From a virus, in the IMG/VR virus record IMGVR_UViG_3300032668_001941, positions 1 to 40,481 of that record: a DNA stretch of 40,481 nt; one strand, given 5' to 3'. Below are positions 5,066 through 27,713 of the stretch, one piece after another. The notes under the pieces are model-generated. The model searched no databases. It saw only the letters and a program-made list of their open reading frames with translations, and was not told the DNA's origin. Position numbers and translations under genes: made by a program. Each line of letters opens with the position of its first letter. Position 1 is the stretch's first letter.

Positions 5066-5707
5066 TTATTTTTCTAGTAGACTATAATGTTTTGGATACA
5101 AATGCAAATTAGTTATGAAAAAATGCATTTGACCGATACTATGACCAGTCTTTTCAGAAATTAATTCCATCAATTTTGCAAAACAATACTGGTCATTTCC
5201 GAATCCGTACCAAAGATCTATTGATCTTGAGAATACGGTTAAATTTAATAAATTGTTCTTTATATAAAAATTTAAAACTACATTACACGGGGTATCGTAC
5301 TTGTAAATGTCTAATTCATGAAGCAAATAATGAACAATTATTGCACGTCTGGTATCTGGATTTTGTTTTAAATCAGTAATTACTCTATTCAATTGGTTAT
5401 TATAATTCCAGAAGCTTCCATAATTGCTCACTACGTTTGTGGTACCCGGAATCATCATATTTTTCCAAATTTTGGCATGCTCTGAAATTTCCTTTGCATC
5501 TCTATTGCCGGTCATGTACCAATCGAATTCGAAATTTGCATAATCCGCATTGAATTTTCTAATTGGAGTGGTTATAATTTTATCACTTGGATCAGATAAA
5601 GAAAACGAACAGTTAAATAATGCTTTTGTTCCCGCAAAATCTTCTCCAAAATCCGCTACTTTTTTATACAGTGATTCGAACGCATTTGTTGCGTTTTTAT
5701 AGATCAT
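5066..5707 (-). CDS. Thymidylate synthase family, dCMP hydroxymethylase-like
   Basis: A 213-residue member of the thymidylate synthase fold. The catalytic Cys141 lies in DTPCNVVLNFYI, with the Arg-Ser-x-x-Asp phosphate motif SRSID (Arg161, Asp164) and the C-terminal NLHLYPKHY. The base-recognition Asn of true thymidylate synthases is replaced by Asp172 in YGFGNDQY. T4 gp42 has the very similar GFRNDYAW, where that Asp selects cytosine. NPDTRRAIIV also matches NPDSRRGIMI of gp42. The likely reaction is dCMP plus methylene-tetrahydrofolate to 5-hydroxymethyl-dCMP. It is shorter than gp42 (246 residues) at the C-terminus. It overlaps the dCMP deaminase gene by 11 bases. Confidence 0.85.
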   Translation of the reverse strand: MIYKNATNAFESLYKKVADFGEDFAGTKALFNCSFSLSDPSDKIITTPIRKFNADYANFEFDWYMTGNRDAKEISEHAKIWKNMMIPGTTNVVSNYGSFWNYNNQLNRVITDLKQNPDTRRAIIVHYLLHELDIYKYDTPCNVVLNFYIKNNLLNLTVFSRSIDLWYGFGNDQYCFAKLMELISEKTGHSIGQMHFFITNLHLYPKHYSLLEK

Positions 5708-6200
5708 ACTTTTCTACTTTTACAAATTGAGATAAAAATTCAATACTACCGTTATCACGTTTAAATAATTCAGAATAAACCACCCTTATTATTCCTGATT
5801 GAATTATTAATTTGGCACAATCTATGCATGGGGATAATGTGGAATAAAGAGTAGATCCTTGAACTGCAATTCCTGATTTGGTGGCTTTTAGTATGGCGTT
5901 AGATTCTCCGTGAAGAACGTGAGGTTTTGTCACTAGTTTATATCTACCGAAATCATCCACCAAAGGCCAATCCTCCATAGTTTTTTCTGGGTGTAACGAG
6001 TTATCCGAAGCTTCGTACATGTAAGCCTTTTCTTCGCAATCATTGTCCATGCCATGAGGAGCTCCGTTGTACCCCATGCTCAAAATATTTTCATCTTTTA
6101 CTAGTATGGATCCTACTTTAACCCTAACGCAATAGGACAGCGTTGATATTTCTTTTGCGATGTTTAAGTAAACACCATCAAGTCTTTGCTGCTTATTCAT
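5697..6200 (-). CDS. dCMP deaminase
   Basis: A 167-residue zinc-dependent deoxycytidylate deaminase that would make dUMP from dCMP. The zinc site is HGESNAI (His97, with catalytic Glu99) and SPCIDCAK (Cys125, Cys128). SMGYNGAPHGMDNDCEE is the usual substrate and secondary-zinc region. The length agrees with phage and eukaryotic homologues. Together with the hydroxymethylase-like gene just downstream and the MazG gene just upstream (8-base overlap), it forms a nucleotide-pool operon competing for dCMP. Confidence 0.95.
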   Translation of the reverse strand: MNKQQRLDGVYLNIAKEISTLSYCVRVKVGSILVKDENILSMGYNGAPHGMDNDCEEKAYMYEASDNSLHPEKTMEDWPLVDDFGRYKLVTKPHVLHGESNAILKATKSGIAVQGSTLYSTLSPCIDCAKLIIQSGIIRVVYSELFKRDNGSIEFLSQFVKVEKYDL

Positions 6201-6495
6201 CTTTTTTAAATGTTCCGTTTTCCATTTTTCCCTTCCTTTTCGCTATGACCGCGTAAGCCGAGTTTATGCAATTTTCTATGTTATAGCCTTTGAGTTTGGC
6301 CAAATTAGTCAAAACCACTACGCAATCCCCAATGGCATCTACGAACTCTTCTTCATTTTGCTTTAAAATGGATTCAGCTAGCTCTCCCATTTCCTCCATT
6401 AATTTTACGTACTGAGTTTTTGAATCACCCTTGGAATAAATTCCTTTGTCTTCAGCCCAATCTCTTATGGGTTGAAATTCATTTTTTAAATTCAT
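6193..6495 (-). CDS. MazG-like nucleotide pyrophosphohydrolase
   Basis: A 100-residue single-domain MazG-type all-alpha NTP pyrophosphatase. It has the metal-binding EExxE pattern in KLMEEMGELAES (Glu34, Glu35, Glu38) and a second E-x-x-D cluster in EEFVDAIGDCVV (Asp53, Asp57). Such phage proteins clear non-canonical or host dNTPs, or alter ppGpp. Here it could remove dCTP so that a modified dCTP is used, which is an inference. It overlaps both neighbours (4 bases with the protease, 8 with the deaminase). Confidence 0.9.
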   Translation of the reverse strand: MNLKNEFQPIRDWAEDKGIYSKGDSKTQYVKLMEEMGELAESILKQNEEEFVDAIGDCVVVLTNLAKLKGYNIENCINSAYAVIAKRKGKMENGTFKKDE

Positions 6496-7046
6496 ATTAT
6501 TTCCTCTATTATTTTTAATTTTAATGCTTCTTCTGAATCAATGTACCAATCTTTTTTAGCGTCGTAACACCTTCTAAGTTGATCTTGGGTAATTTCAGTT
6601 TTTTTCAAAACATAATCCTCCATGATCTTTTGTATTCTAACTGTTTCAACCAAATCGTCTTGCGTGTCTTTAACCTTTCCATGAAAACCAGTGGAAACTT
6701 GGTGGTACATAAAAGTGGATTGCGGATAACAAAATCTCTTATGACCGCTTATTGATATCCAAAACGCAGCGCTCATTGCGCAGCCAACAACTATGGTGTG
6801 AATTGGAATTTTAGATCGATCTATCACACTTACTAATCCCATAGCGGAATAAGCCTCTCCACCGTAAGAGTCAATGTACAATTGAATGGGTTTTGGTGCA
6901 TAAATCAAATCACTAACTTTCGCAAGTTTCATAAGTTGATTATCGTCCTGAGTTATGTCCAATATTTCTTTAATAATCGCATTAACGCTATCCTGATCCA
7001 CTTGCTTGGCCAAGTGTAAAATTCTATTTTTTGGTTTTAGCTCCAT
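6492..7046 (-). CDS. ClpP-like serine protease
   Basis: A 184-residue ClpP/crotonase-fold peptidase. It has IDSYGGEAYSAM (oxyanion loop), the nucleophile Ser92 in GCAMSAAFWI and His115 in TFMYHQVSTG. The rest follows the ClpP order up to the C-terminal helix-strand IDSEEALKLKIIEE. No ClpX/ClpA ATPase is visible here, so it may work with a host unfoldase or act as a processing protease. Capsid genes are not in this window, so a capsid-maturation role cannot be judged. It overlaps the methyltransferase gene by 10 bases. Confidence 0.92.
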   Translation of the reverse strand: MELKPKNRILHLAKQVDQDSVNAIIKEILDITQDDNQLMKLAKVSDLIYAPKPIQLYIDSYGGEAYSAMGLVSVIDRSKIPIHTIVVGCAMSAAFWISISGHKRFCYPQSTFMYHQVSTGFHGKVKDTQDDLVETVRIQKIMEDYVLKKTEITQDQLRRCYDAKKDWYIDSEEALKLKIIEEII

Positions 7047-7549
7047 ATTTTAATGTGAATTTTTGTGTTGGGCAAGTAAAAATCTTTGTTATTAAATTCT
7101 TTCATGAATCTGTCTAAATTTAGTCCAGCGTAAGTAAAACACTGACCCCTAGATCCGGAATTAAGAACCTTTTTTTCATTTGTTATAAATTTTATTCTCC
7201 CTATCGTAAAAGCTTGATAGTATTTTGTTAGGGGTAAATTCCACTTAGTGTCAGTTCCCTGATTTGTTAAACAAATGAATTCTTTTACGTTTCCAGATTC
7301 GTATTCACTAATCAACTTGTTAGTGAATTTATTAATCAATTTACTCGAATATGGCGGATTTAAAAAACAATTTTTACAAGTCCACGATTTTGTTAAACTA
7401 TTGTCCTCTTTTGTGTAAAATGTTTTAGCACCTATCCAGGAATTTGATATGATATTAGAAGCAGGATCCAAATCTATAGATTCTCCAAAAACCCTTTTTA
7501 CTTTTTCTATTATGTATTCGGGTGTATACCACTCATCATTTTTGTTCAT
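7037..7549 (-). CDS. Phage DNA N6-adenine methyltransferase (Dam family)
   Basis: A 170-residue protein of the phage N-6-adenine methyltransferase family (PF05869). The start DEWYTPEYI, the motif IDLDPAS (Asp28-Pro-Ala-Ser) and the catalytic FLNPPYS (Asn64-Pro-Pro-Tyr67) are all characteristic. It would methylate adenine in phage DNA using S-adenosylmethionine, usually as protection from restriction. No partner endonuclease is seen nearby, so it appears to be an orphan enzyme. It overlaps small genes on either side. Confidence 0.93.
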   Translation of the reverse strand: MNKNDEWYTPEYIIEKVKRVFGESIDLDPASNIISNSWIGAKTFYTKEDNSLTKSWTCKNCFLNPPYSSKLINKFTNKLISEYESGNVKEFICLTNQGTDTKWNLPLTKYYQAFTIGRIKFITNEKKVLNSGSRGQCFTYAGLNLDRFMKEFNNKDFYLPNTKIHIKIWS

Positions 7550-9849: not shown

Positions 9850-10533
9850 TTAAAAACAGATAGTATTATTATTTTTATTTTTACAATTTTCAAAATGCCA
9901 TTGTTTCATTTGATTTATCGCCCCTTCTTTATCACAATAAGGACAGCATACTTTCTTTCTGTTTAGCGCTTTATATTTCATTTTTTTCTGAACATCTAAT
10001 CTTTTAGCTGGATTATTTATACTTAGCCCTCTAAGTCTTCTAGATTCTCTTAAATCGTCTGAAATATTTTTAGCTTTTTCACTCATTATTTTTTTAGTTT
10101 CTAATGAATGTTTTTTTCCTCTGTGAATTTTAGACATGCGATCTTTCATTTCGTCTGACCAAAATTTATTTTTCATATAGCTAGAATGTAAAATAGAACT
10201 TTTTATTTTGGCGTATTCGATTATTCTACTACTAGGCACATATCTAACTTGATTTTTATCTTTTACACTGCACAACATGCTAAATGCTTTTGCTAACTTA
10301 TAATTCTCAGGATAAATTTCATGTAATAGCCAATGGCATAAAAAATGTTCTCTAGCGGTTAATAAAGCTATATTTGAATGATCGTATTGAGTAGGCCATC
10401 CTGTTCCTCCTAAACATTTTGGAACTATATGATGACCTTCATAATACTCTCCAAGTTTTTTTTTATTTTTTCTAATATTTAATTCGTTCTTTGCTCTTTT
10501 ACAAATATCTTCGTAGATTTTTTTATAATTCAT
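9850..10533 (-). CDS. Free-standing HNH homing endonuclease
   Basis: A 227-residue protein. The N-terminal HNH nuclease has EYYEGHHIVPKCLGG (His-His pair), then NIALLTAREHFLCHWLLHEI with the N...H residues. The middle carries a NUMOD3-like DNA-binding segment (RGKKHSLETKKIMSEKAK). The C-terminus has a zinc finger (CPYCDKEG, then H and C). This architecture is typical of mobile intergenic endonucleases in T4-like phages. It sits between two unrelated genes and is preceded by an ATATTTAT box, so it is probably expressed from its own promoter. Confidence 0.92.
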   Translation of the reverse strand: MNYKKIYEDICKRAKNELNIRKNKKKLGEYYEGHHIVPKCLGGTGWPTQYDHSNIALLTAREHFLCHWLLHEIYPENYKLAKAFSMLCSVKDKNQVRYVPSSRIIEYAKIKSSILHSSYMKNKFWSDEMKDRMSKIHRGKKHSLETKKIMSEKAKNISDDLRESRRLRGLSINNPAKRLDVQKKMKYKALNRKKVCCPYCDKEGAINQMKQWHFENCKNKNNNTICF

Positions 10534-10549
10534 AGTTATTTCATATACT

Positions 10550-10557
10550 ATAAATAT
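10550..10557 (-). promoter_or_regulatory. ATATTTAT box before HNH endonuclease
   Basis: The coding strand reads GAATATTTATAGTATATGAAA. The box ends 16 bases before the ATG and has no obvious -35 partner. It is the same octamer found before the other two homing endonuclease genes. Confidence 0.4.
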
Positions 10558-11611: not shown

Positions 11612-13261
11612 TTACATTCCCATCATGGGATTTACTGATTCTTTTTCGTCCTTCGATTTCTTTTCAAAAATTACGCTTTCCGTGGTTAGTATGGTCCCAG
11701 CAACTGAAGCAGCGTTCTTCAATGCGGTAATTACCACTTTACATGGGTCTATCAACCCCTCTTCTATGGAATCGACCACCTTTCCCCTTTTTGCGTCGTA
11801 AGTAGCGGATTTTTCGTTACCAGTTGAAGAATCTTGATCTAAAACTTTTTGTGCGATCTCGTACCAATTTTCCCTGCCTGTGTTTGCGAGTATGGTTCTA
11901 AACGGAGATTCGCAGGCTTTTTTGACAATGTCGTGAGCAATGGCCTCAGGACCAATTTCTGGACTCAATAAAGTTTGAACAGCTTTGTAAAGGGCCATTC
12001 CGCCGCCCGCAACTATTCCGTCCGCAAGAGCTGCCTTAGTGGCGTACAGCGCATCTTCTACCCTGTCTCTCTTCTCTTTTATTTCAACTTCTGAGTTTCC
12101 TCCTACGTTAATGATTGCAACTCCACCCACCAATTTTCCAAGTCTTTCTTGCAATTTTTCTTTTTCGTAAAAAGAACTTGCCTTTTCTATTTGTTCCTTT
12201 ATCTCTTCCGCTCTTTTGACTATCGATGCTTCTTCTCCCTTACCATCAACGATGGTGGTTTCCTCCTTGGAAATCGTTGCCAATCTTGCCTTGCCCAAAA
12301 AACTATCTAATTGAAGCGAAGTTAACTTGTCCAATTTGTGGCCTTTGTCCTTTGATATTACTTGACCCCCCGTAAGAATTGCTATGTCCTCCAAGATCAA
12401 GGTTTTCCTCTCTCCAAAATCGGGTGCTTTTACCGCGCACACTTGCACGATTCCCCTCATTTTGTTTACTATCAGAGTGGCAAGAGCTTCTTCTCCTATG
12501 TCCTCAGAAATCATCAAAAGGGATCTGTTCTCAGCGTTGACCTTGTTCAATACCTGCAAAAGTTCTTGCGCTGATGATATTCTGCCGTCGTAAATTAACA
12601 CGTAGGGATTTTCAAGTCCGCACTGCATGTTTGTGTTATTGGTAACAAAGTAGGGGGATTTATAACCGCGATCGAATTGCATTCCCTCAACGACTTCTAA
12701 GCTAGTTTCACCTGATTTTGATTCCTCTATTGTGACTATGCCCTCGCGACCAACTTTTTCTATCGCGGTCGCTATTAAGTTACCCACCTCTTCGTCGTTA
12801 TTGCCTGAAATGGTGGCAACTTGTTTGATTTGTTCTTGCGAAGATACTTCAACCGATTTGCTTTTAACTCCCAAAATTACTGCGTCAACAACCTTATCTA
12901 TGGCCAATTTGATTTCGATCGCGTTTGTCCCCTGTCTTATGTTTTTTAATCCCTCTTCTACTATTTTCGTGGCCAATAACGTAGAAGTCGTGGTACCGTC
13001 TCCCGCCTCGTTTGCGGATTTTATGCTAACCTGTTTCACTAGGTTAGCACCGATTGTCTCTATCGGGTCCTCTAATTCACCAAAGGCCTTTGCGACTGAC
13101 ACGCCGTCCTTACTGACTCTGACCTCTCCGTATTGATCATTTATCAAAACAGTCCTACCGCCAGGTCCCAAAGTTGAACTAACAGCAGTGTTCAACTTAA
13201 TTATTCCCGATAACAATTTTTCTTTCAATTCTTGTCCGTGGACAAATTGGGTTTTACTCAT
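11612..13261 (-). CDS. groEL: Chaperonin GroEL
   Basis: A full-length 549-residue Hsp60 chaperonin (bacterial GroEL is about 548). It has the nucleotide-binding STLGPGGRTV near residue 30, AGDGTTTSTLLA near 87, DGIVAGGGMALYKA in the second equatorial segment, and the apical domain with GYKSPYFVTN. It ends in MMGM, a short version of the usual GGM tail. With the phage GroES it should form a folding chamber for virion or replication proteins. It overlaps the small zinc-finger gene by 8 bases and is followed by a strong terminator. The codon use looks more G+C rich than the average in the window. Confidence 0.99.
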   Translation of the reverse strand: MSKTQFVHGQELKEKLLSGIIKLNTAVSSTLGPGGRTVLINDQYGEVRVSKDGVSVAKAFGELEDPIETIGANLVKQVSIKSANEAGDGTTTSTLLATKIVEEGLKNIRQGTNAIEIKLAIDKVVDAVILGVKSKSVEVSSQEQIKQVATISGNNDEEVGNLIATAIEKVGREGIVTIEESKSGETSLEVVEGMQFDRGYKSPYFVTNNTNMQCGLENPYVLIYDGRISSAQELLQVLNKVNAENRSLLMISEDIGEEALATLIVNKMRGIVQVCAVKAPDFGERKTLILEDIAILTGGQVISKDKGHKLDKLTSLQLDSFLGKARLATISKEETTIVDGKGEEASIVKRAEEIKEQIEKASSFYEKEKLQERLGKLVGGVAIINVGGNSEVEIKEKRDRVEDALYATKAALADGIVAGGGMALYKAVQTLLSPEIGPEAIAHDIVKKACESPFRTILANTGRENWYEIAQKVLDQDSSTGNEKSATYDAKRGKVVDSIEEGLIDPCKVVITALKNAASVAGTILTTESVIFEKKSKDEKESVNPMMGM

Positions 13262-18354: not shown

Positions 18355-19353
18355 CTATTCGCAAGACACACAGTAGTTAAAATTTTTTGCAAAAGTACTT
18401 GCTGCGCTGGTATTGTGTTGATAGTAAAGGGATTTTATACCCATGCTGTGGGCCAAAAGCATAAGTTCGTTTACTTCTTTAGCCTTTGTGTCTGCCGTAA
18501 TAAATAAATTTAAAGATTGTCCTTGATCTATGTATTTTTGTCTTTGAGCTGCTTGTACAATGATTTCTGTTTGAGAAATTTCCCTAGCGGTTTTAAACAC
18601 CATTTTTTCGGCTTCTGTCAAAAAATCCAAGTGAAGAACACTGCCCTGTTGTTTTTGTATGCTTTCCCAAATTTCTTCAGTATTCTTTCCCTTTGACTCA
18701 AGCAGTTTTTCCAAAAAAACGTTTTTGATCACAAATTTTCCCTTTGATAAATCTTTGATCATATAGTTGCTCATCCATGGTTCTATACCTTGAGAAACTT
18801 GCATAATGAAAGACGAAGATGTGGTTGGTGCGATTGCTTGGGTGGTAGTATTTCTTCTTCCCAAACCTTTTGTCATTTCGCACTCTCCAAATAAATCCGC
18901 CAATTTTTTAGAAGCTGCCAAAGAATTTTCTTGTATGTTTCTTTGAATTTCTAAATTTATTTCTCTTGCTTGTAAACTTTCAAAAGGAATCATTTTACTC
19001 TGTAAAAGAGAATGGTACCCTAAACGACCTATTCCTAAAGCTCTGTGCTTTATAGCAAAGTTAGCCGATCTTTCTAAAAATTTTATTTTTGATGCCTTCT
19101 CTATGAATTCTGTCATAGCCGCATCAAGTAAAAAAGTAATTACTTCAACACAATCTGTGTCCTTCCAATCTTCGTAATAAAAATCATTTAACGAACCCAA
19201 ATCGCACACAAAAGAATTGTCTACGTCAGAGGGAAGCATGATTTCCGTACAATTGTGTACTAATATATCATTAGCATAGAAATTATGATTTTTTTCAACA
19301 GTAATATCATAAACTGGTATTTTTATTTTTTCTTTTCTTATTTTTAATCCCAT
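18355..19353 (-). CDS. nrdA: Ribonucleotide reductase large subunit, C-terminal piece with split-intein C-fragment
   Basis: A 332-residue protein made of a 34-residue C-intein and a 298-residue C-extein. The intein ends NFYANDILVHN before Cys35, with VYDITVE as block F. The extein starts CTEIMLPSDV, where this Cys matches the thiyl-radical Cys of class I reductases (E. coli Cys439) and Glu37 matches Glu441. Other typical pieces are KHRALGIGRLGYH, PTTSSSFIMQVSQGIEP and QSLNLF. It ends FNYCVSCE, the C-terminal redox pair reduced by thioredoxin. Alone it cannot be active. Trans-splicing to the 20469-21533 product would give a 546-residue NrdA without an ATP cone. The start ATG lies one base after the endonuclease gene. 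Confidence 0.96.
   Translation of the reverse strand: MGLKIRKEKIKIPVYDITVEKNHNFYANDILVHNCTEIMLPSDVDNSFVCDLGSLNDFYYEDWKDTDCVEVITFLLDAAMTEFIEKASKIKFLERSANFAIKHRALGIGRLGYHSLLQSKMIPFESLQAREINLEIQRNIQENSLAASKKLADLFGECEMTKGLGRRNTTTQAIAPTTSSSFIMQVSQGIEPWMSNYMIKDLSKGKFVIKNVFLEKLLESKGKNTEEIWESIQKQQGSVLHLDFLTEAEKMVFKTAREISQTEIIVQAAQRQKYIDQGQSLNLFITADTKAKEVNELMLLAHSMGIKSLYYQHNTSAASTFAKNFNYCVSCE
19252..19353 (-). mobile_element. Split intein C-fragment (NrdA-2-like)
   Basis: 34 codons with block F (VYDITVEKNHNFYANDI) and block G (LVHN) before the +1 Cys. The beginning MGLKIRKE and overall length agree with the IntC of the NrdA-2 split intein described from marine metagenomes, as I recall that sequence. 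Confidence 0.93.
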
Positions 19354-19354
19354 T

Positions 19355-20431
19355 TTAATTTAAAATTTGATTTATGTTAGTTAATGGTTTTTTTAAGTAT
19401 ATAAATCTTATGTTGTTTAATTTACAATACTCGATTGCTGAATCAATTTTAATTTGCTCATTTTCCTTTCCACTTTTACCTCTTATAAATCCTTTAATTT
19501 CCAATAGAATTAGTTCATTGTTTATCAAAATTAAAAAATCTGGTAAGTATGTTTTGCCATCTAATCTTCTTATATAGAAAGGTTCATACTCATACTGTAT
19601 TTTATTGTTCTCCAAAAAATTTATAGTTGATAACTCCCAAGAACTTCTATAACGAATCAATGTTTTATTTTTGCAATGTTTCACTTTTATGTAACCAGTT
19701 TTGAAAAATTTAGTCTGACCCATATTTTCATTTCTAGTCATTGCAACAGTACTTATAATGCTCGCCGTCTCTGATGAAATAGAAACGTAATTAGTTTCAT
19801 CAATTTCTACGTTTTCATACTTTTTAACAAAATCAGAGTGCAAAAGTTCGTTTGGATACTTTTTACTAACCATGAATTTTTTTATGCAAGAAATTTTATA
19901 TTTTGCACTTTTTCTTACATCAGATAGGTGTTTACCGTACAAATTAATCACTTCTTCAACATTCTTGCCATTTATGTCTATTCCATGATTAGTTAAATAC
20001 GTTTTTTTAAATTCTAAACTTCTGTTATGCTCAGCAAGTTTGTCTTTATGACTTTGGCTTCTATTCTCATGATACTTAGTAGACCACACCCTCATTTTAT
20101 CTACCCAATCTTTTGTTTGTTTTTTTCCTCTTAGGGAACTTCCCTTCATGTAATTAACAAGATGTTTTTCCCATACAAAGTATCCCTTTTTGCTCCAAAT
20201 TTTAACACTGTTGTTTATAGAATATTTTTCCAAAAAAGTTTTATAATCTAATACGCCTTTATGCATTAAATAGTTTAGAGCTTTACACACCTGTAAATCA
20301 TCTTGTATGCTACTCTTTAAATAATCTATTAAATCTTTGTTAAAACAACTATAAAATTCTTCACTTTTTAATAAAGTAGATATCGATACTTTTTTGCGTC
20401 TTGATTTTTTCACTTGTCTTGATTTTTCCAT
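19355..20431 (-). CDS. PD-(D/E)XK homing endonuclease inside the fractured nrdA
   Basis: A 358-residue protein placed between the two nrdA pieces. The C-terminal nuclease core has SSWELSTINFLEN (Glu266), GKTYLPDFLI (Asp298) and LILLEIKGF (Glu311-x-Lys313), the PD-(D/E)XK signature. The N-terminal two thirds is basic and helical and probably binds DNA (RGKKQTKDWVDKMRVWSTKY resembles NUMOD-type segments). It should cut intein-less nrdA alleles and drive their conversion. It has an ATATTTAT box five bases before its ATG and ends one base before the next ATG. Confidence 0.9.
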   Translation of the reverse strand: MEKSRQVKKSRRKKVSISTLLKSEEFYSCFNKDLIDYLKSSIQDDLQVCKALNYLMHKGVLDYKTFLEKYSINNSVKIWSKKGYFVWEKHLVNYMKGSSLRGKKQTKDWVDKMRVWSTKYHENRSQSHKDKLAEHNRSLEFKKTYLTNHGIDINGKNVEEVINLYGKHLSDVRKSAKYKISCIKKFMVSKKYPNELLHSDFVKKYENVEIDETNYVSISSETASIISTVAMTRNENMGQTKFFKTGYIKVKHCKNKTLIRYRSSWELSTINFLENNKIQYEYEPFYIRRLDGKTYLPDFLILINNELILLEIKGFIRGKSGKENEQIKIDSAIEYCKLNNIRFIYLKKPLTNINQILN

Positions 20432-20436
20432 TTATG

Positions 20437-20444
20437 ATAAATAT
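20437..20444 (-). promoter_or_regulatory. ATATTTAT box before the nrdA-borne endonuclease
   Basis: The coding strand reads TTCATATTTATCATAAATGG, five bases before the ATG. Transcription from it would give an almost leaderless message for the endonuclease alone. Confidence 0.4.
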
Positions 20445-20468
20445 GAAAAAATCAAAGATGTGCACAGG

Positions 20469-20789
20469 CTATTTAAGTATTTTTAAAATATCATCTTCTT
20501 TTAAGTCTTTGGCCATCACATATCCTCTATTTACAGTATATACTTGGTGTTCCGGTGTACAAATTATACTCTTTCCTGTTTCCTCATCTTCTATAGTCAA
20601 TACTTCAGCTTCCTTATTCATCAAAGCTCCATTTAGGATTTTTGTGAATTCAACCTCGTCTGATTCTATACAATATGATTTAACCAGTATCTCTTGTCCA
20701 GACTTGAATAACTCAATTGCAGTTTTTATATCAACTTTGTGTTGTTCTCCATCAAAAATAATAGTGACTATTGAATTCTCAGCAAGACA
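20469..20789 (-). mobile_element. Split intein N-fragment (NrdA-2-like)
   Basis: 106 codons plus stop. It starts at Cys1 (codon 20787-20789), has the block B CTPEHQVYT and lacks any endonuclease insertion. The split lies at the canonical position between blocks B/N4 and F. Confidence 0.93.
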
Positions 20790-21533
20790 CATTTGAGAAG
20801 CTTTTAAAACATTTTTACCCCTATAGACTTCGGGGGTCGATTCGTGATTGTTTGCATTATCAGTAAAAAATATATAAGGAAGCCCAGTTTCAAATTTTTT
20901 CTGTATTACTTTCGCCCATAACTTTCTTTTACTGGCGTCTCCTGCTTTCATTTCTTCTATCCACTTGGTGGAAACGCAAACCCCCCAAGTAATGTGTTGT
21001 ATTGGATCTCCCTCTGCACGAATATTTAACCACTCTTCTATGTCTGGATGTTCTATGTCTTGATACCCTGAAAAATACCCGCGTCTTACTGATCCTTGAT
21101 TCATTGATTGCGAGCATGCTTGAAACAATTCCAAAAAAGCTTTAGAACCATTGCTATGACCATTATTCTTAATCACGCTTCCTCGACCCCTTAAAGCTCC
21201 AAAATATCCAGAAGTTCCGCCTCCAAACTTACTCATGGTACCTATTTCCGCAACAGAACTAAGAATACTTTCTACGCTATCGCTTACATATACACCAAAG
21301 CAACTAATCGGTAATCCCCTATCGGTTCCAAAATTAGTCCAAATGGGAGTACTTAAACTTATCCAACCATTGGATATATATTTTTGTAATTTTTCGCTGT
21401 AACCAGGTACCTTTAAAATTTTCTCTGCTGAGTCTCCAATTATTTTTATTCTCTCTTGTACAGTTTGCCCAGGTAGAAGATAATCTTTTTCCAAAAAAGC
21501 TTTTGAATATTTATTTAACCATTTGATCTTCAT
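20469..21533 (-). CDS. nrdA: Ribonucleotide reductase large subunit, N-terminal piece with split-intein N-fragment
   Basis: A 354-residue protein made of a 248-residue N-extein and a 106-residue N-intein. The extein has WISLSTPIWTNFGT, LPISCFGVYVSDS (a catalytic-site Cys), KFGGGTSGYFGALRGRGS and QGSVRRGYFSGYQ, all class I NrdA features. No ATP-cone domain is present. The extein ends VLKASQM, followed by intein Cys1 (CLAENSIV). Block B is ICTPEHQVYTVNRGY and the end is AKDLKEDDILKIL. The break falls just before the radical Cys, so enzyme activity depends on trans-splicing with the 18355-19353 product. It lies 25 bases after nrdB. Confidence 0.96.
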   Translation of the reverse strand: MKIKWLNKYSKAFLEKDYLLPGQTVQERIKIIGDSAEKILKVPGYSEKLQKYISNGWISLSTPIWTNFGTDRGLPISCFGVYVSDSVESILSSVAEIGTMSKFGGGTSGYFGALRGRGSVIKNNGHSNGSKAFLELFQACSQSMNQGSVRRGYFSGYQDIEHPDIEEWLNIRAEGDPIQHITWGVCVSTKWIEEMKAGDASKRKLWAKVIQKKFETGLPYIFFTDNANNHESTPEVYRGKNVLKASQMCLAENSIVTIIFDGEQHKVDIKTAIELFKSGQEILVKSYCIESDEVEFTKILNGALMNKEAEVLTIEDEETGKSIICTPEHQVYTVNRGYVMAKDLKEDDILKILK

Positions 21534-22887: not shown

Positions 22888-23385
22888 CTACTTTCCGATC
22901 AATTGAACAAATTTTTCGTTTAAATAGCTCTTTTCGTCTTGGGTAAACGAAGATTTGTTTATCATTTGGGGTTTACGATCAAAATTTTGGCCCGTATCGA
23001 ATGTCAATTCTTCTTCACCCATTTCGTCATTACTCAATTCTATTTTCCCGTATCCGGTATTAACTTTTGCGCTGTACGTCATACCGTCTCCACCGTACCT
23101 GTTTTTCATTATGTGGATCCTGCCCGTGCCGTTGACCTTGTCCTGCCGCTTTCTTGACAAGGACATGGCAAAGTCCGCAATCATCATCTTGTTGTAGGAT
23201 CCTGCAGCTTTGTCTCCCTCAATAACATCGTTATGGGCTCCAGAATTATGGCTGTACACTCCATTTGCAAAAAACATGTGGGTGTCTTCCACTGTTATGT
23301 CCACAGTGTCTGTGTACCCTATCAACTCTATGCTCTCTATCTCTGAAAGATCAAAGTCTTTCGAATTCAGTTCGTGTTTATTCAT
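22888..23385 (-). CDS. DnaB/gp41-like helicase, C-terminal piece with split-intein C-fragment
   Basis: A 165-residue protein made of a 47-residue C-intein (TVDITVEDTHMFFANGVYSHN) and a 118-residue C-extein beginning SGAHNDVIEGDKAAGSYNKM. The extein continues with the helicase core segment DFAMSLSRKRQDKVNGTGRI and HIMKNRYGGDG, including the arginine-finger region of the RecA fold. The start ATG is 44 bases after the middle piece, with no endonuclease gene in between. Splicing to the 23430-24536 product restores the motif SQVNRSGAHND. Confidence 0.95.
   Translation of the reverse strand: MNKHELNSKDFDLSEIESIELIGYTDTVDITVEDTHMFFANGVYSHNSGAHNDVIEGDKAAGSYNKMMIADFAMSLSRKRQDKVNGTGRIHIMKNRYGGDGMTYSAKVNTGYGKIELSNDEMGEEELTFDTGQNFDRKPQMINKSSFTQDEKSYLNEKFVQLIGK
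23245..23385 (-). mobile_element. Split intein C-fragment, helicase site 2 (gp41-8-like)
   Basis: 47 codons ending in His-Asn before a +1 Ser. The length (46 in gp41-8, as I recall) and the SxIE(Y/L)xG...DI.V....FFANG pattern agree with gp41-8 IntC. Confidence 0.92.
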
Positions 23386-23429
23386 TTTCTTTTTTTATAA
23401 AGTTTTTACATTTGTTTAATATAGTATCT

Positions 23430-23699
23430 TTATTTTTTTATAAAAAGTTTGTTTCCAACTATCAAACCTGTAGCTATAGATTTTAACTTTCCATACTGAG
23501 TAGGTAATATATGATTAGCAGAGACATTTATTTCTTTACCATTTTTCAATCTAATTCTATAGGTAGGTTGTTTTTGAACCGGATAAACTTTAGTGACTTT
23601 TTTGAATCCTTTATGAGTTAATATCTGATCTCCAATTCTAATGTCTCCTATCCTAACTTTGCCATTTGGAGTTTCTACTTTATCGTCTACATTATGGCA
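23430..23699 (-). mobile_element. Split intein N-fragment, helicase site 2 (gp41-8-like)
   Basis: 89 codons plus stop beginning with Cys1. SANHILPTQYGKLKSIATGL matches the gp41-8 pattern SANHKFPT...GL as recalled. The gp41-8 IntN is 88 residues. Confidence 0.92.
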
Positions 23700-24536
23700 T
23701 CGGTTTACTTGGGATACTGTCCATATCGGCACTTTTAATTCCCTTGCCATTCCCTTTACCGCAGTATACACATCGTCTATCGCGTCTTTTGGATCTATCG
23801 ATCTAGTCTTGCTCTTTAAAAGATCCACGTAGTCTATGATAACCAAGTCAGGTGGATACTTTAGGTCCCTACACTTTTGAATGTGAGACTCTATCGTGGC
23901 CGGCCCAACTTTTCCCATAGGATACTCTTTGATAATGAGCTTTCCTGGTAATTTTTCTATCGCTGCAGTAACTTTGTCCTTGTGCAAGTGAATTTGTTGA
24001 GCATCGATGCCCGTAAATATCGCATCGTACCTCTTACCTACGTAGTCTTCCGAGAGTTCTAACGTGTAGTGACACACTGTAAATCCTGCCTTAACTGCAG
24101 CGGCTCCCAAATTTACTAAACACCAAGAGTTGTGAGAAAGTATGCCGTTTGAATAGTAGCAGTGAACTTCATCAACAGACATGTCGTAAAGAACTTTGTC
24201 TTTTTTAAGATGAACTTTTTTTGTGATTTTTGTTATTCCTTTTTCTGTTGTCACTAAGTCCCCCACGTCCAAATCTTCAATTTTTTTCCACTCTTCGCCC
24301 ACCTTTAACATGTGATGATTTGAGCTGGTCAGCGTTTTCCCGTTTGAAAAATAAGTTGTCACTCTTTTTTGTTTTTCAGTAGTAAACAAATTGACTATCT
24401 GTTTGTAGCCGTAAGGAGTCTTTACCTTTAAAGGAAAATTAATCAGCCTAACATTATTTGGCTTGGGCTCTATTGCCAACTTCATGAATAAATTTTCTAT
24501 CGAAATTTTTCTTTGGACTTTTCTGGTCTTTAACAT
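23430..24536 (-). CDS. DnaB/gp41-like helicase, middle piece flanked by two split-intein fragments
   Basis: A 368-residue protein with three parts. Residues 1-136 are an unusually long C-intein carrying block B (TSSNHHMLKV), block F (VLYDMSVDEVHCYYSNGI) and block G (LSHN). Residues 137-279 are helicase (SWCLVNLGAAAVKAGFTVC, the residue after the Walker A Lys, then Walker B PPDLVIIDYVDLLK and IWTVSQVNR). Residues 280-368 are an N-intein starting CHNVDDKVETPNGKV with block B SANHILPTQYG. It needs two trans-splicing reactions, one at each end. Its ATG overlaps the end of the endonuclease gene by seven bases. Confidence 0.95.
   Translation of the reverse strand: MLKTRKVQRKISIENLFMKLAIEPKPNNVRLINFPLKVKTPYGYKQIVNLFTTEKQKRVTTYFSNGKTLTSSNHHMLKVGEEWKKIEDLDVGDLVTTEKGITKITKKVHLKKDKVLYDMSVDEVHCYYSNGILSHNSWCLVNLGAAAVKAGFTVCHYTLELSEDYVGKRYDAIFTGIDAQQIHLHKDKVTAAIEKLPGKLIIKEYPMGKVGPATIESHIQKCRDLKYPPDLVIIDYVDLLKSKTRSIDPKDAIDDVYTAVKGMARELKVPIWTVSQVNRCHNVDDKVETPNGKVRIGDIRIGDQILTHKGFKKVTKVYPVQKQPTYRIRLKNGKEINVSANHILPTQYGKLKSIATGLIVGNKLFIKK
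24129..24536 (-). mobile_element. Split intein C-fragment, helicase site 1 (atypical, 136 residues)
   Basis: 136 codons that include block B as well as F and G, so the intein is split just after block A, not at the usual endonuclease insertion site. The arrangement resembles the atypical TerL-type split inteins. The +1 residue is Ser. Confidence 0.88.
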
Positions 24537-25393
24537 ATATAACTTTTTACTCTATTTAATTCAAATTCTTTGTTTGAAATCCAATCATTCTCCCAAATTA
24601 TTAAAACTTCGTATCCCAAATTTTTATAATGATTTATTTTTTCATTGTCTTTTTTCCAAATATCCTTTACGATTCCGGGTTTTATTTTTTCATCCTCTTT
24701 ATAAAATGCGGGGTTAGCATGCCAATAATCTCCAAATATCTCGATTATAAATTTTTTATTGATCAATATATCGGTTATATAATGATCTATTGAAATATTG
24801 CATTCAGTATTTTCAAATAAATTTTTTATCTGATTAAAACAATCTATTTCTAACTTAGACCTACTATCTTTATAGTTTTCAAAATGCTTAACCCACTTTT
24901 TTGGATCTGTGTTTAAAATATGTTGCTTTAAATTTGCGCGTATTTGATCTATAGATTTTTTGCTGTGGTGTTTGCCTGTAAATTTTAAAGATTTTGAACT
25001 TCTAACAGATTGAATTTTACTAACTTGAAAAATTGATTCTTCATGAGAAAATCCCTTTTTCATCCAATGTTCTATACAAATGGGTGATGCCTGTTTCTGT
25101 TTTATAGAAAGCAAATCTTTTTTTAGTAATTCGTCCCCTTTTGCCTGTTTGTCTATTCTTGATAAAAAAAACGATCTTTGAACCTCTTTTACTTTACTTT
25201 TGGCATCTTCCAAACTAAAACCTCTATAGACCCAATATTCTATAGTTCTATTACTATGGCCCGTCATTAATCTTGATTTTGGATATAATTTTTTATATTC
25301 TTTAGTCTTTAATGAATGACTGTCTTTTAGATGATTCTGCAAATTGTACTTTTCTAGATGGCCACATATTTCACAAATTAATCCTAATTGCAT
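24530..25393 (-). CDS. Vsr-like (EDxHD) homing endonuclease inside the fractured helicase gene
   Basis: A 287-residue protein between the first and second helicase pieces. The N-terminus has a zinc finger (CEICGHLEKYNLQNHLKDSH, Cys7, Cys10, His21, His26). The middle is two repeated segments, EYWVYRGFSLEDAKSKVKE and EHWMKKGFSHEESIFQVSK, probably DNA-binding. The C-terminal nuclease (SKLEIDCF, HYITDIL, FIIEIFGDYWHANP, YEVLIIWENDW) is the very-short-patch-repair fold of the EDxHD family, first described between split-intein halves. It should spread the fractured allele. It has its own ATATTTAT box. Confidence 0.92.
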   Translation of the reverse strand: MQLGLICEICGHLEKYNLQNHLKDSHSLKTKEYKKLYPKSRLMTGHSNRTIEYWVYRGFSLEDAKSKVKEVQRSFFLSRIDKQAKGDELLKKDLLSIKQKQASPICIEHWMKKGFSHEESIFQVSKIQSVRSSKSLKFTGKHHSKKSIDQIRANLKQHILNTDPKKWVKHFENYKDSRSKLEIDCFNQIKNLFENTECNISIDHYITDILINKKFIIEIFGDYWHANPAFYKEDEKIKPGIVKDIWKKDNEKINHYKNLGYEVLIIWENDWISNKEFELNRVKSYIC

Positions 25394-25409
25394 AATATTT
25401 TAATTTATT

Positions 25410-25417
25410 ATAAATAT
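25410..25417 (-). promoter_or_regulatory. ATATTTAT box before the Vsr-like endonuclease
   Basis: The coding strand reads GATGATATTTATAATAAATT. The box touches the stop codon of the first helicase piece and ends 16 bases before the endonuclease ATG. Confidence 0.4.
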
Positions 25418-26211
25418 CATCCTCCTAGTTTTTGGGTCTCAACAAATTCAAAGAAATTTTTTACTTCGTATCCCCACATGTGCATTCCATCTATATTAAA
25501 CTCCGCAAAAGAATCGAACCAAATAGTCGCTGTCTTTCCTTTATTATTTACGTCAATTCCTATTTCTTCGTACTCTATTTCTATTATAGAATTTGGTCCA
25601 ATGCACTTTCCTCCTCCAGGATTACCGAATATCAATCCCAAATCTCCTACGCCAAGGCCCCCCATCAATAGTTTATTTAAATTTTCCCACGGTGTTGCAA
25701 CCGGCGATCTTTGATCCGTTCTATACCTTGTTTCCATATCTTTTTCGTACTCGTGACCTATTGTTTTGTCTTGGCCCGCCTTCGCTGCCGTATTTACTAT
25801 GTGACGAATGTCCTCGTATTCACCTCTTTCCAACAATTTAACAGACTGCAATATCGCATTTTTTAACTGTTGGTTCCTACAAAAATTAGAAAATTCCTGC
25901 TCCACGTATTCCCTATCATCGTTTGTGGCTTTAAGTGATTCTTTAAGTTGGTCTATGACACTAACCTTTAAAATTTCGTTGTCTATTTTTTTAACTTCGA
26001 CTTGTAACGATTCTGTGGACGGCGTAGTATGATATTTTTGGTAATACCTTAAAGTTTCAGACACAATCCACTTGTGAGCAGGAGAATCAAACATTTCCAA
26101 ATCCAATACATCGTTTACGTTCTGCAAAAACTCTTTATGTTTTAATAAACTCGATAAAACCTTAATTTGAAAACCGTTACCGTAACTTTGTAAAGTATTT
26201 AGTACTGCCAT
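25417..26211 (-). CDS. DnaB/gp41-like helicase, N-terminal piece with split-intein N-fragment
   Basis: A 264-residue protein: 202 residues of helicase and a 62-residue N-intein. The first part is the helical N-terminal collar (FQIKVLSSLLKHKEFLQNV, FDSPAHKWIVSETLRYYQKY) and the linker. The start of the RecA core follows, with PWENLNKLLMGGLGVGDLGL and the Walker A FGNPGGGK, cut exactly after the Lys. The intein begins CIGPNSIIEIEYEEIG. Joined with the other two pieces it gives a 463-residue helicase, close to T4 gp41 (475). The Ser needed to complete the P-loop is on the next gene, so the piece alone cannot bind ATP normally. Confidence 0.95.
   Translation of the reverse strand: MAVLNTLQSYGNGFQIKVLSSLLKHKEFLQNVNDVLDLEMFDSPAHKWIVSETLRYYQKYHTTPSTESLQVEVKKIDNEILKVSVIDQLKESLKATNDDREYVEQEFSNFCRNQQLKNAILQSVKLLERGEYEDIRHIVNTAAKAGQDKTIGHEYEKDMETRYRTDQRSPVATPWENLNKLLMGGLGVGDLGLIFGNPGGGKCIGPNSIIEIEYEEIGIDVNNKGKTATIWFDSFAEFNIDGMHMWGYEVKNFFEFVETQKLGG
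25420..25605 (-). mobile_element. Split intein N-fragment, helicase site 1 (62 residues)
   Basis: 62 codons from Cys1 (codon 25603-25605) to the stop, with block A only. Canonical N-fragments are about 90-110 residues and include block B. Confidence 0.88.
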
Positions 26212-26218
26212 AATTTAT

Positions 26219-26683
26219 TTACATTTTATAAGTAACAACTGTTACTTTGCAATCTACCAATTCAGTTTTAATAATATTTTTAATTTTTTCCCAATCCCCT
26301 CCTGCCAAACCGGCGCCAATTTTAGGAAGACCTATGTGTTTTCCTGAAAATCTTAAATTTATCTTCCTCATGCACAATGTCAAAGCTTCGTAGTCAAATG
26401 GTTTTAATTTAGGTCCAACTAATCTTTGTGTATAAGAATTTACAACATATACTTTTTTATCAGGTTTTACTGGTATAAGCTTGAAATCTATTTGTCCCAA
26501 TTTATTTACATCTCCAGCGGTAGAAAGCTCTTCCAAAGGAAATGTATTACAACCGAAAGTTCGAGCCATCATTACGGCTATTCCTGCTCCCATATTGCAC
26601 AAACAATTACAACCATGAGTTATCACGTCAAAATTTCCTTCTTTTGCTAATTTAATTAAATCTCCCTCTATTTCTTGATACAT
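26219..26683 (-). CDS. Macro-domain protein (ADP-ribose binding)
   Basis: A 154-residue macro domain from the ATG at 26681-26683. A TTG 36 bases upstream would overlap the exonuclease gene and is less likely. It starts with the typical IEGDLIKLAKEGNFDVITHG and has HGCNCLCNMGAGIA (ligand-binding Asn and Gly loop) and HIGLPKIGAGLAGGDWEKI (second loop). It resembles the ALC1/TARG1-like short macro domains that remove ADP-ribose or hydrolyse ADP-ribose phosphate. In a phage it could reverse host ADP-ribosylation or degrade a defence signal derived from NAD. This is inference. Confidence 0.93.
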   Translation of the reverse strand: MYQEIEGDLIKLAKEGNFDVITHGCNCLCNMGAGIAVMMARTFGCNTFPLEELSTAGDVNKLGQIDFKLIPVKPDKKVYVVNSYTQRLVGPKLKPFDYEALTLCMRKINLRFSGKHIGLPKIGAGLAGGDWEKIKNIIKTELVDCKVTVVTYKM

Positions 26684-26684
26684 T

Positions 26685-27713
26685 TTATTTGTATTTTTCC
26701 AATTCGTTAAATTTATCAAAAAGCCACAATGTCAAATTATTGATGCTCTTTCCCAAATCATCCTCTTCGTAAAGTTCAGCAAATTCCCTCGGTCTAAAAG
26801 ATTTATGGGGATTTTTAAGTACATGATCTATCGTTATAACAGAATCTTCAGGAATGTTTGGATTTTTTAGGTCCATTAGCTTTTCATTAATGAACAATTG
26901 ATTTTTAAAAGCTAGTATTTTTTCAAACATAGATCCCTTAGAAATCTCTGCCTTTTCAATAACTTCTTTTAGAGTAAAAATTTTATCAAACGAAAGTTCT
27001 GGATAGTGTTTCAAAAGAGTTTTTTGACCGAGTCCTCTGACTCCGGGAACGTTATCTCCACTATCGCCCATTAATATCTTCTCCATTAAAAAATTCTGTG
27101 GCGTCACTCCGTACTCTTCTACAACTTGTTTTGGTTGATAAAACTTTTTCTTTATGGGGGAATACACTGTAATTTTATCGTTCACAAGTTGTAAATAATC
27201 CCTATCGCTAGAAACTATCGTAACTTCCCCAGGCAATTTTCCAACTAAATATCCTATCACATCATCGGCTTCTATTTTGTCAACAGACAAAAGATCTACC
27301 GGCAAGCACTTCAAATAATCTATTAGTCTTAGAATTTGATTTGTTATGGATTCAGCCTCTTGTTCTTGATTGTCAAAAAGGTCCCAATTTGTGACTCTGC
27401 GATAACCCCTATTTGCTTTGTATTCTGGGTATATGTACCTTTTATTTGTTGACCCACCCTGGCCATCAAAGACTAGAATGACCCTGGTGGGCCTAACTAA
27501 ATTTATTGCATAACCAAGGGATTTTAAATATCCGGTCAATCCCCCAATGTGGTGACCGTGTTTATTAACGTGATTGATTATTGCAAAAGATCTTATGAAA
27601 GAATTCAAAGAGTCTATGATTAGAACCCTATCGTTAAGCTTTAATGGATCTTTTTTATCAATCGATGAATCCTCTTTCAAGGATTTCAACATTTCTTTGT
27701 ATCTGTCTTCCAT
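26685..27713 (-). CDS. 5'-3' exonuclease / flap endonuclease
   Basis: A 342-residue FEN/T4 RNase H-family nuclease. Metal-binding acidic clusters are visible in VLIIDSLNSFIRSF, VILVFDGQGGSTNKR, VDKIEADDVIGYLVG and TIVSSDRDYLQLV, and the helix-hairpin-helix region is MGDSGDNVPGVRGLGQKT. It would remove RNA primers and flaps. It supplies the domain missing from the phage PolA. The ATG overlaps the uvsX stop by one base (TAATG), so the two are coupled. Confidence 0.96.
   Translation of the reverse strand: MEDRYKEMLKSLKEDSSIDKKDPLKLNDRVLIIDSLNSFIRSFAIINHVNKHGHHIGGLTGYLKSLGYAINLVRPTRVILVFDGQGGSTNKRYIYPEYKANRGYRRVTNWDLFDNQEQEAESITNQILRLIDYLKCLPVDLLSVDKIEADDVIGYLVGKLPGEVTIVSSDRDYLQLVNDKITVYSPIKKKFYQPKQVVEEYGVTPQNFLMEKILMGDSGDNVPGVRGLGQKTLLKHYPELSFDKIFTLKEVIEKAEISKGSMFEKILAFKNQLFINEKLMDLKNPNIPEDSVITIDHVLKNPHKSFRPREFAELYEEDDLGKSINNLTLWLFDKFNELEKYK

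What the first reader, a model, noticed from the sequence alone, without database searches (positions are those of the whole stretch)
22888..26211. A replicative helicase encoded as three genes joined by two split inteins
Seen: 25417-26211 ends in an intein Cys1 segment right after Walker A GGGK. 23430-24536 starts with an intein C-part ending LSHN|S and ends with a second Cys1 segment after SQVNR. 22888-23385 starts with an intein C-part ending YSHN|S and continues the helicase. Removing the inteins gives 202+143+118 = 463 residues, near T4 gp41 (475). Known: single fractured gp41/DnaB genes with split inteins were described from marine metagenomes. Two trans-splicing events in one helicase, with a middle fragment that must react at both ends, plus a homing endonuclease in the same locus, is striking. 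Inference: active helicase needs ordered or at least orthogonal trans-splicing.
Basis: partly seen in the sequence, partly recalled or inferred. Interest (0 to 1): 0.92.

Follow-up and report, generated by a model that had tools for sequence, protein, structure and literature searches.

The report
Phage helicase built from three genes
A phage encodes the motor that unwinds its DNA as three separate protein pieces, which two different self-cutting linkers are predicted to stitch into one working enzyme; laboratories engineer this trick, and here nature appears to use it, in several phage lineages.

Summary
On the minus strand, N (25417-26211), M (23430-24536) and C (22888-23385) encode 202+143+118 = 463 residues of one gp41/DnaB-type helicase. 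Split intein 1, inside the P-loop (GGGK|S), joins N to M; split intein 2, after SQVNR, joins M to C. In silico ligation gives one continuous helicase: 263.5 bits to phrog_19 against 100.9, 98.6 and 23.5 for the pieces. L011, 90% identical, is unbroken at both sites.

The arrangement recurs: of 211 distinct middle segments, 6 are split at both sites, 18 at site 1 only, 12 at site 2 only, 162 at neither (intein-biased sampling). Splicing residues are conserved in every pair examined, the closest comparisons show purifying selection on all four halves, and +1 Ser at site 2 occurs in 20 of 20 invaded but 13 of 172 empty alleles.

Intein 1 keeps a Vsr/EDxHD-like endonuclease gene; at intein 2 only 38 bases of one remain. 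The inteins split at different places and here have opposite charge polarity, which should hinder mispairing; two of five doubly split loci lack that polarity. Splicing is untested. It looks like a natural counterpart of engineered tandem trans-splicing: a new variant of 'fractured genes'.

The parts
25606..26211 (-). N-extein of the helicase (202 aa): N-terminal domain up to the P-loop lysine (GGGK)
   Evidence: phrog_19 positions 164-366, 100.9 bits; boundaries
25417..25605 (-). IN1: N-half of split intein 1 (62 aa plus stop), Cys1, net charge -7, no block B by my reading of the alignment
   Evidence: aligned with contiguous inteins of L117, L025, L140; no family-library match of its own
24530..25393 (-). 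Free-standing endonuclease gene (287 aa) inside intein 1, Vsr/EDxHD-like; its end overlaps the start codon of M by 7 nt
   Evidence: AlphaFold model pLDDT 81.5, pTM 0.41; Foldseek: Vsr 1cw0 and I-Bth0305I 3r3p lead the list, probability 1.00 each, E 0.004-0.012, no match at E 0.001 or better; conserved residues; overlap read
24129..24536 (-). IC1: C-half of split intein 1 (136 aa), carries block B and the terminal His-Asn, net charge +11
   Evidence: PT-HINT and Intein_splicing matches in M; TIGR01443 intein_Cterm 19.5 bits over cut-off 15.6
23700..24128 (-). Middle extein (143 aa): P-loop serine, Walker B (LVIIDY), motif ending SQVNR
   Evidence: DnaB_C 48.7 bits; phrog_19 positions 367-507
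23430..23699 (-). IN2: N-half of split intein 2 (89 aa plus stop), Cys1, block B, net charge +12
   Evidence: IN2+IC2 match the gp41-1 intein structure 6qaz, E 2.2e-20; TIGR01445 intein_Nterm 20.6 bits, below its cut-off 24.5
23386..23429 (-). 44-nt gap; the 38 nt next to the C start codon are the relic of a deleted endonuclease gene
   Evidence: 36 of 38 nt identical to the 3' end of the endonuclease region in L084; score 66, maximum of 500 shuffles 35
23245..23385 (-). IC2: C-half of split intein 2 (47 aa), terminal His-Asn, net charge -8
   Evidence: TIGR01443 30.2 bits over cut-off 15.6
22888..23244 (-). C-extein of the helicase (118 aa plus stop): SLSRKR ... KNRYG
   Evidence: phrog_19 positions 521-611, 23.5 bits; motif positions

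Best explanation
This is one gp41/DnaB-type replicative helicase gene of a tailed phage, broken twice by two distinct mobile split inteins, each probably brought in with a homing endonuclease gene. The phage makes three polypeptides. N-IN1 meets IC1-M-IN2, and that meets IC2-C. Intein 1 ligates the P-loop lysine to the P-loop serine; intein 2 ligates SQVNR to the next serine. Each ligation is the class 1 reaction (Cys1, +1 Ser, terminal Asn). Because the P-loop is cut in two and later catalytic segments lie on M and C, no fragment should be an active ATPase alone, so helicase activity should need both ligations. Mispairing should be disfavoured because the two inteins split at different positions: IN1 lacks block B and IC1 carries it; IN2 carries it and IC2 lacks it. 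In this phage the two halves on M are both basic (+11, +12) and the outer halves both acidic (-7, -8), so IC1 and IN2 of M should not attract each other. Intein 1 still has its endonuclease gene; intein 2 has lost its own but remains split and conserved. Shown here: gene anatomy, extein continuity, residue conservation, purifying selection, recurrence, the endonuclease relic. Inferred: that splicing occurs, that it is orthogonal, and that the endonucleases cut the empty sites.
For: Joined exteins score 263.5 bits over phrog_19 164-604 and 70.5 bits to DnaB_C versus 100.9/98.6/23.5 and 48.7 for pieces; best solved relative 8dtp, 475 aa, E 4.8e-23. L011 carries the helicase unbroken at both sites with 90% extein identity. 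Of 211 distinct middle segments, 162 have the exteins abutting within 12 nt at both sites. Cys1 and terminal His-Asn are in 22 of 22 distinct split pairs of intein 1 and 15 of 15 of intein 2, from the 40 sequences read. +1 Ser at site 2: 20 of 20 invaded, 13 of 172 empty (Fisher 8e-19, rows not independent). dN/dS window vs L010: IN1 0.08, IC1 0.046; window vs L084: IN2 0.135, IC2 0.057, middle extein 0.056. The contiguous homologue of intein 1 in L117 is predicted at pLDDT 89.9 and matches inteins in the PDB (VidaL 6vgv E 9.7e-8; gp41-1 Z 18.4). The three-gene state needs 6 changes on the extein tree, at least 5 forced by starred branches. Relic.
Against: No splicing data exist for these proteins. 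IN1 alone matches no family library, and the profile comparison of intein 1 with intein 2 aligned only the IC1 part. The charge polarity is not universal: opposite signs hold in 15 of 15 pairs of intein 2 but 13 of 22 of intein 1, and of five doubly split loci examined L167 (IC1 0) and L127 (IC1 -3) lack it; it also occurs in phages with intein 1 alone, so it is not shown to be an adaptation to double splitting. IC1 and IC2 share their C-terminal motif (42% over 19 residues), so some cross-reaction is possible. The record is a fragment.
Confidence: 0.92

Rival explanations
1. The pieces work as a non-covalent split helicase: three subunits fold together and the intein halves are dead remnants.
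For: Fragments of one fold can sometimes complement each other (general knowledge). The endonuclease of intein 2 is already decayed.
Against: Both junctions fall inside conserved motifs, one inside the P-loop. Cys1, His-Asn and the +1 nucleophile are conserved in every pair examined and dN/dS of all four intein halves is 0.046-0.135 in the closest comparisons; dead remnants would drift.
Confidence: 0.04
2. The locus is a decaying pseudogene and an intact helicase elsewhere in the phage does the work.
For: The window is a 40-kb fragment, so the rest of the genome is unseen.
Against: Single DnaB_C match in the window, in the 70,518-base record that shares the locus and in the L005 record, and in four other doubly split records; one over-cut-off helicase in each of six 160-183 kb empty-site relatives, three with a second match below the cut-off. 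dN/dS of the middle extein is 0.024 against L011.
Confidence: 0.03
3. The three ORFs are joined before or during translation (RNA intron, frameshift or stop readthrough), so the inteins splice in cis.
For: The gap at intein 2 is short (44 nt). In some relatives intein 1 is contiguous (L117, L140, L025).
Against: No Rfam match at gathering thresholds in the whole window. Both N-halves end in ordinary stops and the 455 nt between the exteins at intein 2 shift the frame. Intein 2 keeps its split position across lineages with gaps of 11 to 1,226 nt. Intein 2 is a relative of gp41-1, a known split intein.
Confidence: 0.02
4. Sequencing or assembly error broke an intact gene.
For: None found beyond the metagenomic origin.
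Against: Same arrangement in other metagenome records (L002, L003) and in five other distinct sequences.
Confidence: 0.01

Closest known systems
Fractured genes with split inteins and a free-standing endonuclease (Dassa et al. 2009, NAR, doi 10.1093/nar/gkp095; paper not held, seen only as a reference in other papers; content recalled)
   Same: Conserved replication enzyme broken by a split intein with an endonuclease gene, often Vsr-related, in the break; gp41 helicase among the hosts (recalled).
   Different: As recalled, each locus is one gene broken in two. Here one gene is broken twice and one break has lost its endonuclease. I could not check whether that paper lists a doubly broken case.
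gp41-1 and gp41-8 split inteins
   Same: Intein 2 matches the gp41-1 structure 6qaz at E 2.2e-20 and is split in the canonical place (89+47).
   Different: That gp41-1 sits at another site and gp41-8 after SQLNR is recalled; a text search for the flanks found nothing.
Two contiguous inteins in Mycobacterium smegmatis DnaB (PMC6195587, PMC8557812; passages read)
   Same: One replicative helicase with two inteins, one of them in the P-loop using the P-loop serine as +1.
   Different: There both inteins are contiguous, in one gene; here both are split and the gene is in three parts.
Engineered tandem protein trans-splicing (Khoo et al. 2020, PMC7210297; Humberg et al. 2025, PMC12707363; passages read)
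   Same: Three segments joined by two orthogonal split inteins; Khoo et al. paired CfaDnaE (101+36) with a highly asymmetrically split SspDnaB (11+143).
   Different: Engineered; here it is a natural gene arrangement.
Atypically split TerL inteins (AceL-TerL, VidaL)
   Same: Short N-half and long C-half; the best Foldseek match of the intein 1 homologue is VidaL 6vgv. That these split before block B is recalled.
   Different: N-half here is 55-74 residues in the loci read rather than 25 as in AceL-TerL (PMC11766414, passage), with an extra segment between blocks A and B.

Membership tests
Class 1 split intein (both inteins) | Cys or Ser at position 1, penultimate His and terminal Asn, nucleophilic +1 residue, halves on separate ORFs | tested here: met
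   22 of 22 and 15 of 15 distinct pairs among the 40 sequences read; +1 Ser or Thr at site 1 in 26 of 26 invaded, Ser at site 2 in 20 of 20
Class 1 split intein (both inteins) | HINT fold | tested here: met
   Intein 1: model of the contiguous homologue L117, by homology for the window. Intein 2: sequence match to 6qaz. The window's halves were not modelled together.
Class 1 split intein (both inteins) | Trans-splicing activity | not testable with these tools
   Needs expression of the proteins
gp41/DnaB-type replicative helicase | Walker A, Walker B, SQxNR motif and C-terminal basic segments in order in one chain after ligation | tested here: met
gp41/DnaB-type replicative helicase | Hexameric ATPase and unwinding | not testable with these tools
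   Biochemistry needed
Fractured gene | Enzyme gene broken by a split intein with a free-standing endonuclease gene in the break (definition recalled) | tested here: met
   Intein 1 with ORF 24530-25393. Intein 2: relic only; ORFs of 366 and 308 aa fill the break in close relatives L084 and L086
EDxHD / Vsr-like homing endonuclease | Fold of the catalytic domain and conserved acidic and His residues | tested here: met
   1cw0 and 3r3p lead the Foldseek list at probability 1.00, though E is only 0.004-0.012 and Toxoplasma mitoribosome chains also score at 0.97-1.00; D208, E218, H225 invariant, D249 in at least 90% of 11 sequences; which residues make the motif is recalled
EDxHD / Vsr-like homing endonuclease | Cleavage of intein-less alleles and homing | not testable with these tools
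   No DNA cleavage data
gp41-8 intein allele | Insertion at SQLNR|S (recalled) | tested here: inconclusive
   Window site is SQVNR|S; one search found no text that states the gp41-8 site
Tandem protein trans-splicing | Three segments, two inteins, no cross-reaction | not testable with these tools
   Segments and inteins shown; cross-reaction untested

The most novel reading that the evidence does not exclude
A naturally evolved tandem protein trans-splicing system: a replication enzyme obligatorily assembled from three genes, with built-in orthogonality from different split positions and, in some lineages, opposite charge polarity, reached repeatedly by independent double invasions and retained after the endonuclease is lost, so that gene fragmentation behaves as a one-way ratchet.
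Probability: 0.45. Interest if true: 0.78.

Novelty: new variant of a known kind. Interest (0 to 1): 0.64.

Why it matters
It gives a natural test of a question that engineers of multi-segment proteins face: how a middle fragment with a C-half at its front and an N-half at its back avoids cyclising or polymerising. The lineages hold many intermediates (empty, one intein, both, contiguous intein 1 with split intein 2, with and without endonuclease), so the path of gene breaking and endonuclease loss can be studied from sequence. It also adds an atypically split P-loop intein with an extra segment between blocks A and B, and a ready-made pair of candidate orthogonal split inteins.

Tried and rejected
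Rejected: RNA intron (Rfam gathering thresholds, no match in the window); a second intact helicase in the records at hand; assembly error. Led nowhere: PDB sequence search with the endonuclease (one irrelevant match at E 0.53); genome-contig scan for the middle protein (46 stretches matched a pattern, none confirmed); search for the gp41-8 flanks in print (none); the founding fractured-genes paper and the 2012 characterisation paper are not held. Among 50,697 isolated-phage records no close copy of either intein was found: IC1 matched 7 records at 28.8-33.7% identity and IN2 matched 123, none at 60% or more (25 rows seen, best-ranked a Shigella phage DNA primase/helicase at 35.3%). I saw no description of a natural doubly split gene in the listings of paper searches or in the passages read; [quoted passage not shown] The library holds only CC0/CC BY/CC BY-SA papers, so this is not evidence that none exists. 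Considered and not claimed: charge polarity as an adaptation to double splitting. Alignments A1 and A3 misplaced the short N-halves and were not used for prediction; A4 left the N-halves out. The locus scans were capped: 80 of 87, 80 of 218, 80 of 264, 15 distinct loci from 16 and 80 of 155 relatives kept. In one search, 192 of 211 distinct sequences had all parts complete enough to use, 50 of 154 empty ones were kept after thinning. Intein halves were read in 40 chosen sequences, the window included.
Full report
WHAT IS THERE. Cutting at Cys1 and after the terminal Asn gives exteins of 202, 143 and 118 residues and intein halves of 62 (IN1), 136 (IC1), 89 (IN2) and 47 (IC2). The window is a 40,481-base virus record. 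The best match among isolated phages is a Flavobacterium phage helicase at 54.7% identity over 90% of the joined protein, so a Bacteroidota host is plausible but only inferred.

ONE HELICASE. The pieces match phrog_19 (DnaB-like replicative helicase) at positions 164-366, 367-507 and 521-611, with 100.9, 98.6 and 23.5 bits. Joined, they match 164-604 with 263.5 bits, DnaB_C with 70.5 bits against 48.7 for M alone, and a solved DnaB-like replicative helicase of 475 residues, 8dtp, at E 4.8e-23 (that this is T4 gp41 is recalled). The P-loop GNPGGGK|S and TVSQVNR|S span the two junctions; Walker B is in M; SLSRKR and KNRYG are in C (motif names recalled). No fragment should hold a whole active site.

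EMPTY SITES AND RECURRENCE. Five scans of viral contigs, four with middle proteins (window, L005, L127, L167) and one with the window's C protein (at most 80 loci kept per scan), gave, with the window, 304 sequences with a middle segment, 211 of them distinct in DNA. By state at site 1 / site 2: empty/empty 162; split/empty 18; empty/split 12; split/split 6; contiguous/split 2; split/unknown 2; contiguous/unknown 1; unknown/split 1 (L004); empty/unknown 3; unknown/empty 3; unclear 1. 'Empty' means exteins abutting within 12 nt. Most queries carried inteins and the lists were capped, so these are not population frequencies. The six doubly split sequences are the window (= L002 = L003), L005, L127 (= L129 = L131), L162, L167 and the L245-L248 group; a group is given the state of its most complete member. 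L011 is empty at both sites with the helicase in one 464-residue ORF. On a quick tree of exteins (88 rows; 50 of 154 empties kept) the three-gene state needs 6 changes, at least 5 forced by starred branches; shuffled labels give 5.9, so the state is not clustered at all. The nearest row to the window's (L002) is L011. Changes may be gains or losses, so I read this as repeated assembly or loss of the double break, not as a count of gains.

BOTH INTEINS LOOK ACTIVE. Cys1 and terminal His-Asn occur in 22 of 22 distinct split pairs of intein 1 and 15 of 15 of intein 2 among the 40 sequences read (alignments). At site 2 the +1 residue is Ser in 20 of 20 invaded sequences, while in 172 empty ones it is Ala 126, Met 26, Ser 13, Gly 6, Thr 1; Fisher 8e-19, with the caution that related rows are not independent. 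At site 1 the +1 residue is the P-loop Ser/Thr whether invaded (26 of 26) or not (166 of 166). dN/dS by a simple Nei-Gojobori count: window vs L010, IN1 0.08 and IC1 0.046; window vs L084, IN2 0.135, IC2 0.057 and middle extein 0.056; window vs L011, middle extein 0.024; many other values were saturated at silent sites, and the highest value obtained for an intein half was 0.243 (IN1, L005 vs L162). Between two loci without an intact endonuclease (L125, L128) IN2 and IC2 give 0.105 and 0.097, so constraint seems to outlast the endonuclease.

WHAT THE INTEINS ARE. Intein 2 is split in the canonical place and matches the gp41-1 intein structure 6qaz at E 2.2e-20. Intein 1 is split earlier, before block B, with an extra segment between blocks A and B (block names recalled; alignment). 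IN1 alone matches no family library; its identity rests on its place, Cys1, and alignment with contiguous homologues in L117, L025 and L140. The L117 homologue was predicted at mean pLDDT 89.9; its one segment under 50 is residues 40-50, next to residues 52-53 where the window's break maps. It matches VidaL (E 9.7e-8) and gp41-1 (Z 18.4, rmsd 1.6 over 123) among many inteins. Profile comparison of intein 1 with intein 2 aligned only the IC1 part.

ORTHOGONALITY. IN1 lacks block B and IC1 has it; IN2 has it and IC2 lacks it. A swapped pair would therefore have none or two. In the window net charges are IN1 -7, IC1 +11, IN2 +12, IC2 -8, so by net charge both cognate pairs attract and both swapped pairs repel. 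Opposite signs hold in 15 of 15 pairs of intein 2 but 13 of 22 of intein 1; of five doubly split loci examined (of six), the window, L005 and L162 show the full pattern, L167 and L127 do not. Loci with intein 1 alone can show it too. So charge may help here but is not shown to be selected for this purpose. IC1 and IC2 still resemble each other at their ends.

ENDONUCLEASES AND HISTORY. The endonuclease in intein 1 was modelled at pLDDT 81.5, pTM 0.41; its best Foldseek matches are Vsr (1cw0) and the homing endonuclease I-Bth0305I (3r3p), at probability 1.00 with E 0.004-0.012; no match reached 0.001, and Toxoplasma mitoribosome chains follow closely. I-Bth0305I exemplifies the EDxHD family (PMC3943268, passages). 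In intein 2 only a 44-nt gap remains; its last 38 nt match the 3' end of the endonuclease region of L084 at 36 of 38 (score 66; 500 shuffles, maximum 35). Short gaps, some with decayed endonuclease sequence by my reading, occur in other lineages at both inteins. The endonuclease overlaps the next fragment's start codon, so the retained 3' tail may carry that fragment's translation start: an inference. L004 is near-identical to the window from IC1 up to about 60 nt into IC2 and then diverges, so IC2 alleles seem to recombine.

COMPARISON. It fits the fractured-gene arrangement (Dassa et al. 2009; not held, recalled) but doubled. M. smegmatis DnaB carries two contiguous inteins, one in the P-loop (PMC6195587, passages). 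Engineered tandem trans-splicing joins three segments with two orthogonal split inteins, in one design with one highly asymmetric split (PMC7210297, passages), the same logic as here. The paper searches listed under Tried and rejected showed no natural doubly split gene, but the key paper was out of reach.

VERDICT. Real, conserved and recurrent; splicing is not demonstrated. A new variant of a known kind.

Noticed in passing
18355-21533 (-): A third fractured gene: nrdA in two pieces (exteins 248+298 aa) with split intein halves of 106 and 34 aa, junction KASQM|CTEIML, and an endonuclease-like ORF 19355-20431 between them.
   Followed up: partly
10546-10556, 20433-20443, 25406-25416 (-): TATTTATnnTA occurs three times on the minus strand, each 1-12 nt before the start of one of three endonuclease genes (the total of 4 on both strands is within chance, shuffles mean 2.26, 16 of 100 with 4 or more; it is the placing that is odd). 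19 of 25 distinct endonuclease-bearing split inteins have TATTTA[TA] near the break against 10.6% of random windows. It also precedes other genes, some virion-like by eye (64 distinct ORFs against 2-31 for five control patterns of 189-459 occurrences), so it may be a phage promoter that the endonucleases use.
   Followed up: partly
9850-10533 (-): Homing endonuclease gene (phrog_655, 5.3e-44; HNH family also matched) between a threonine-dehydratase-like gene and an unknown gene.
   Followed up: no
26219-26719 (-): Macro-domain-like gene (phrog_335; Pfam Macro below its cut-off) sits between the exonuclease and helicase genes; a similar ORF, by eye, precedes the helicase in L010, while L011 has the exonuclease directly before the helicase.
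   Followed up: no
L004:1473-1970: Recombination breakpoint about 60 nt into IC2: near-identical to the window before it, divergent after.
   Followed up: partly
L025:5257-7206: Helicase with contiguous intein 1 and IN2 at its end; the N-terminal domain is itself interrupted between ORFs 5257-5544 and 5557-7206, perhaps a frameshift or sequencing error.
   Followed up: no
L167:6645-8502: Doubly split helicase in which both breaks hold only short gaps (134 and 239 nt), with decayed endonuclease remnants by my reading.
   Followed up: partly
11612-13261 (-): Phage-encoded GroEL chaperonin (phrog_5725, 2.4e-143).
   Followed up: no
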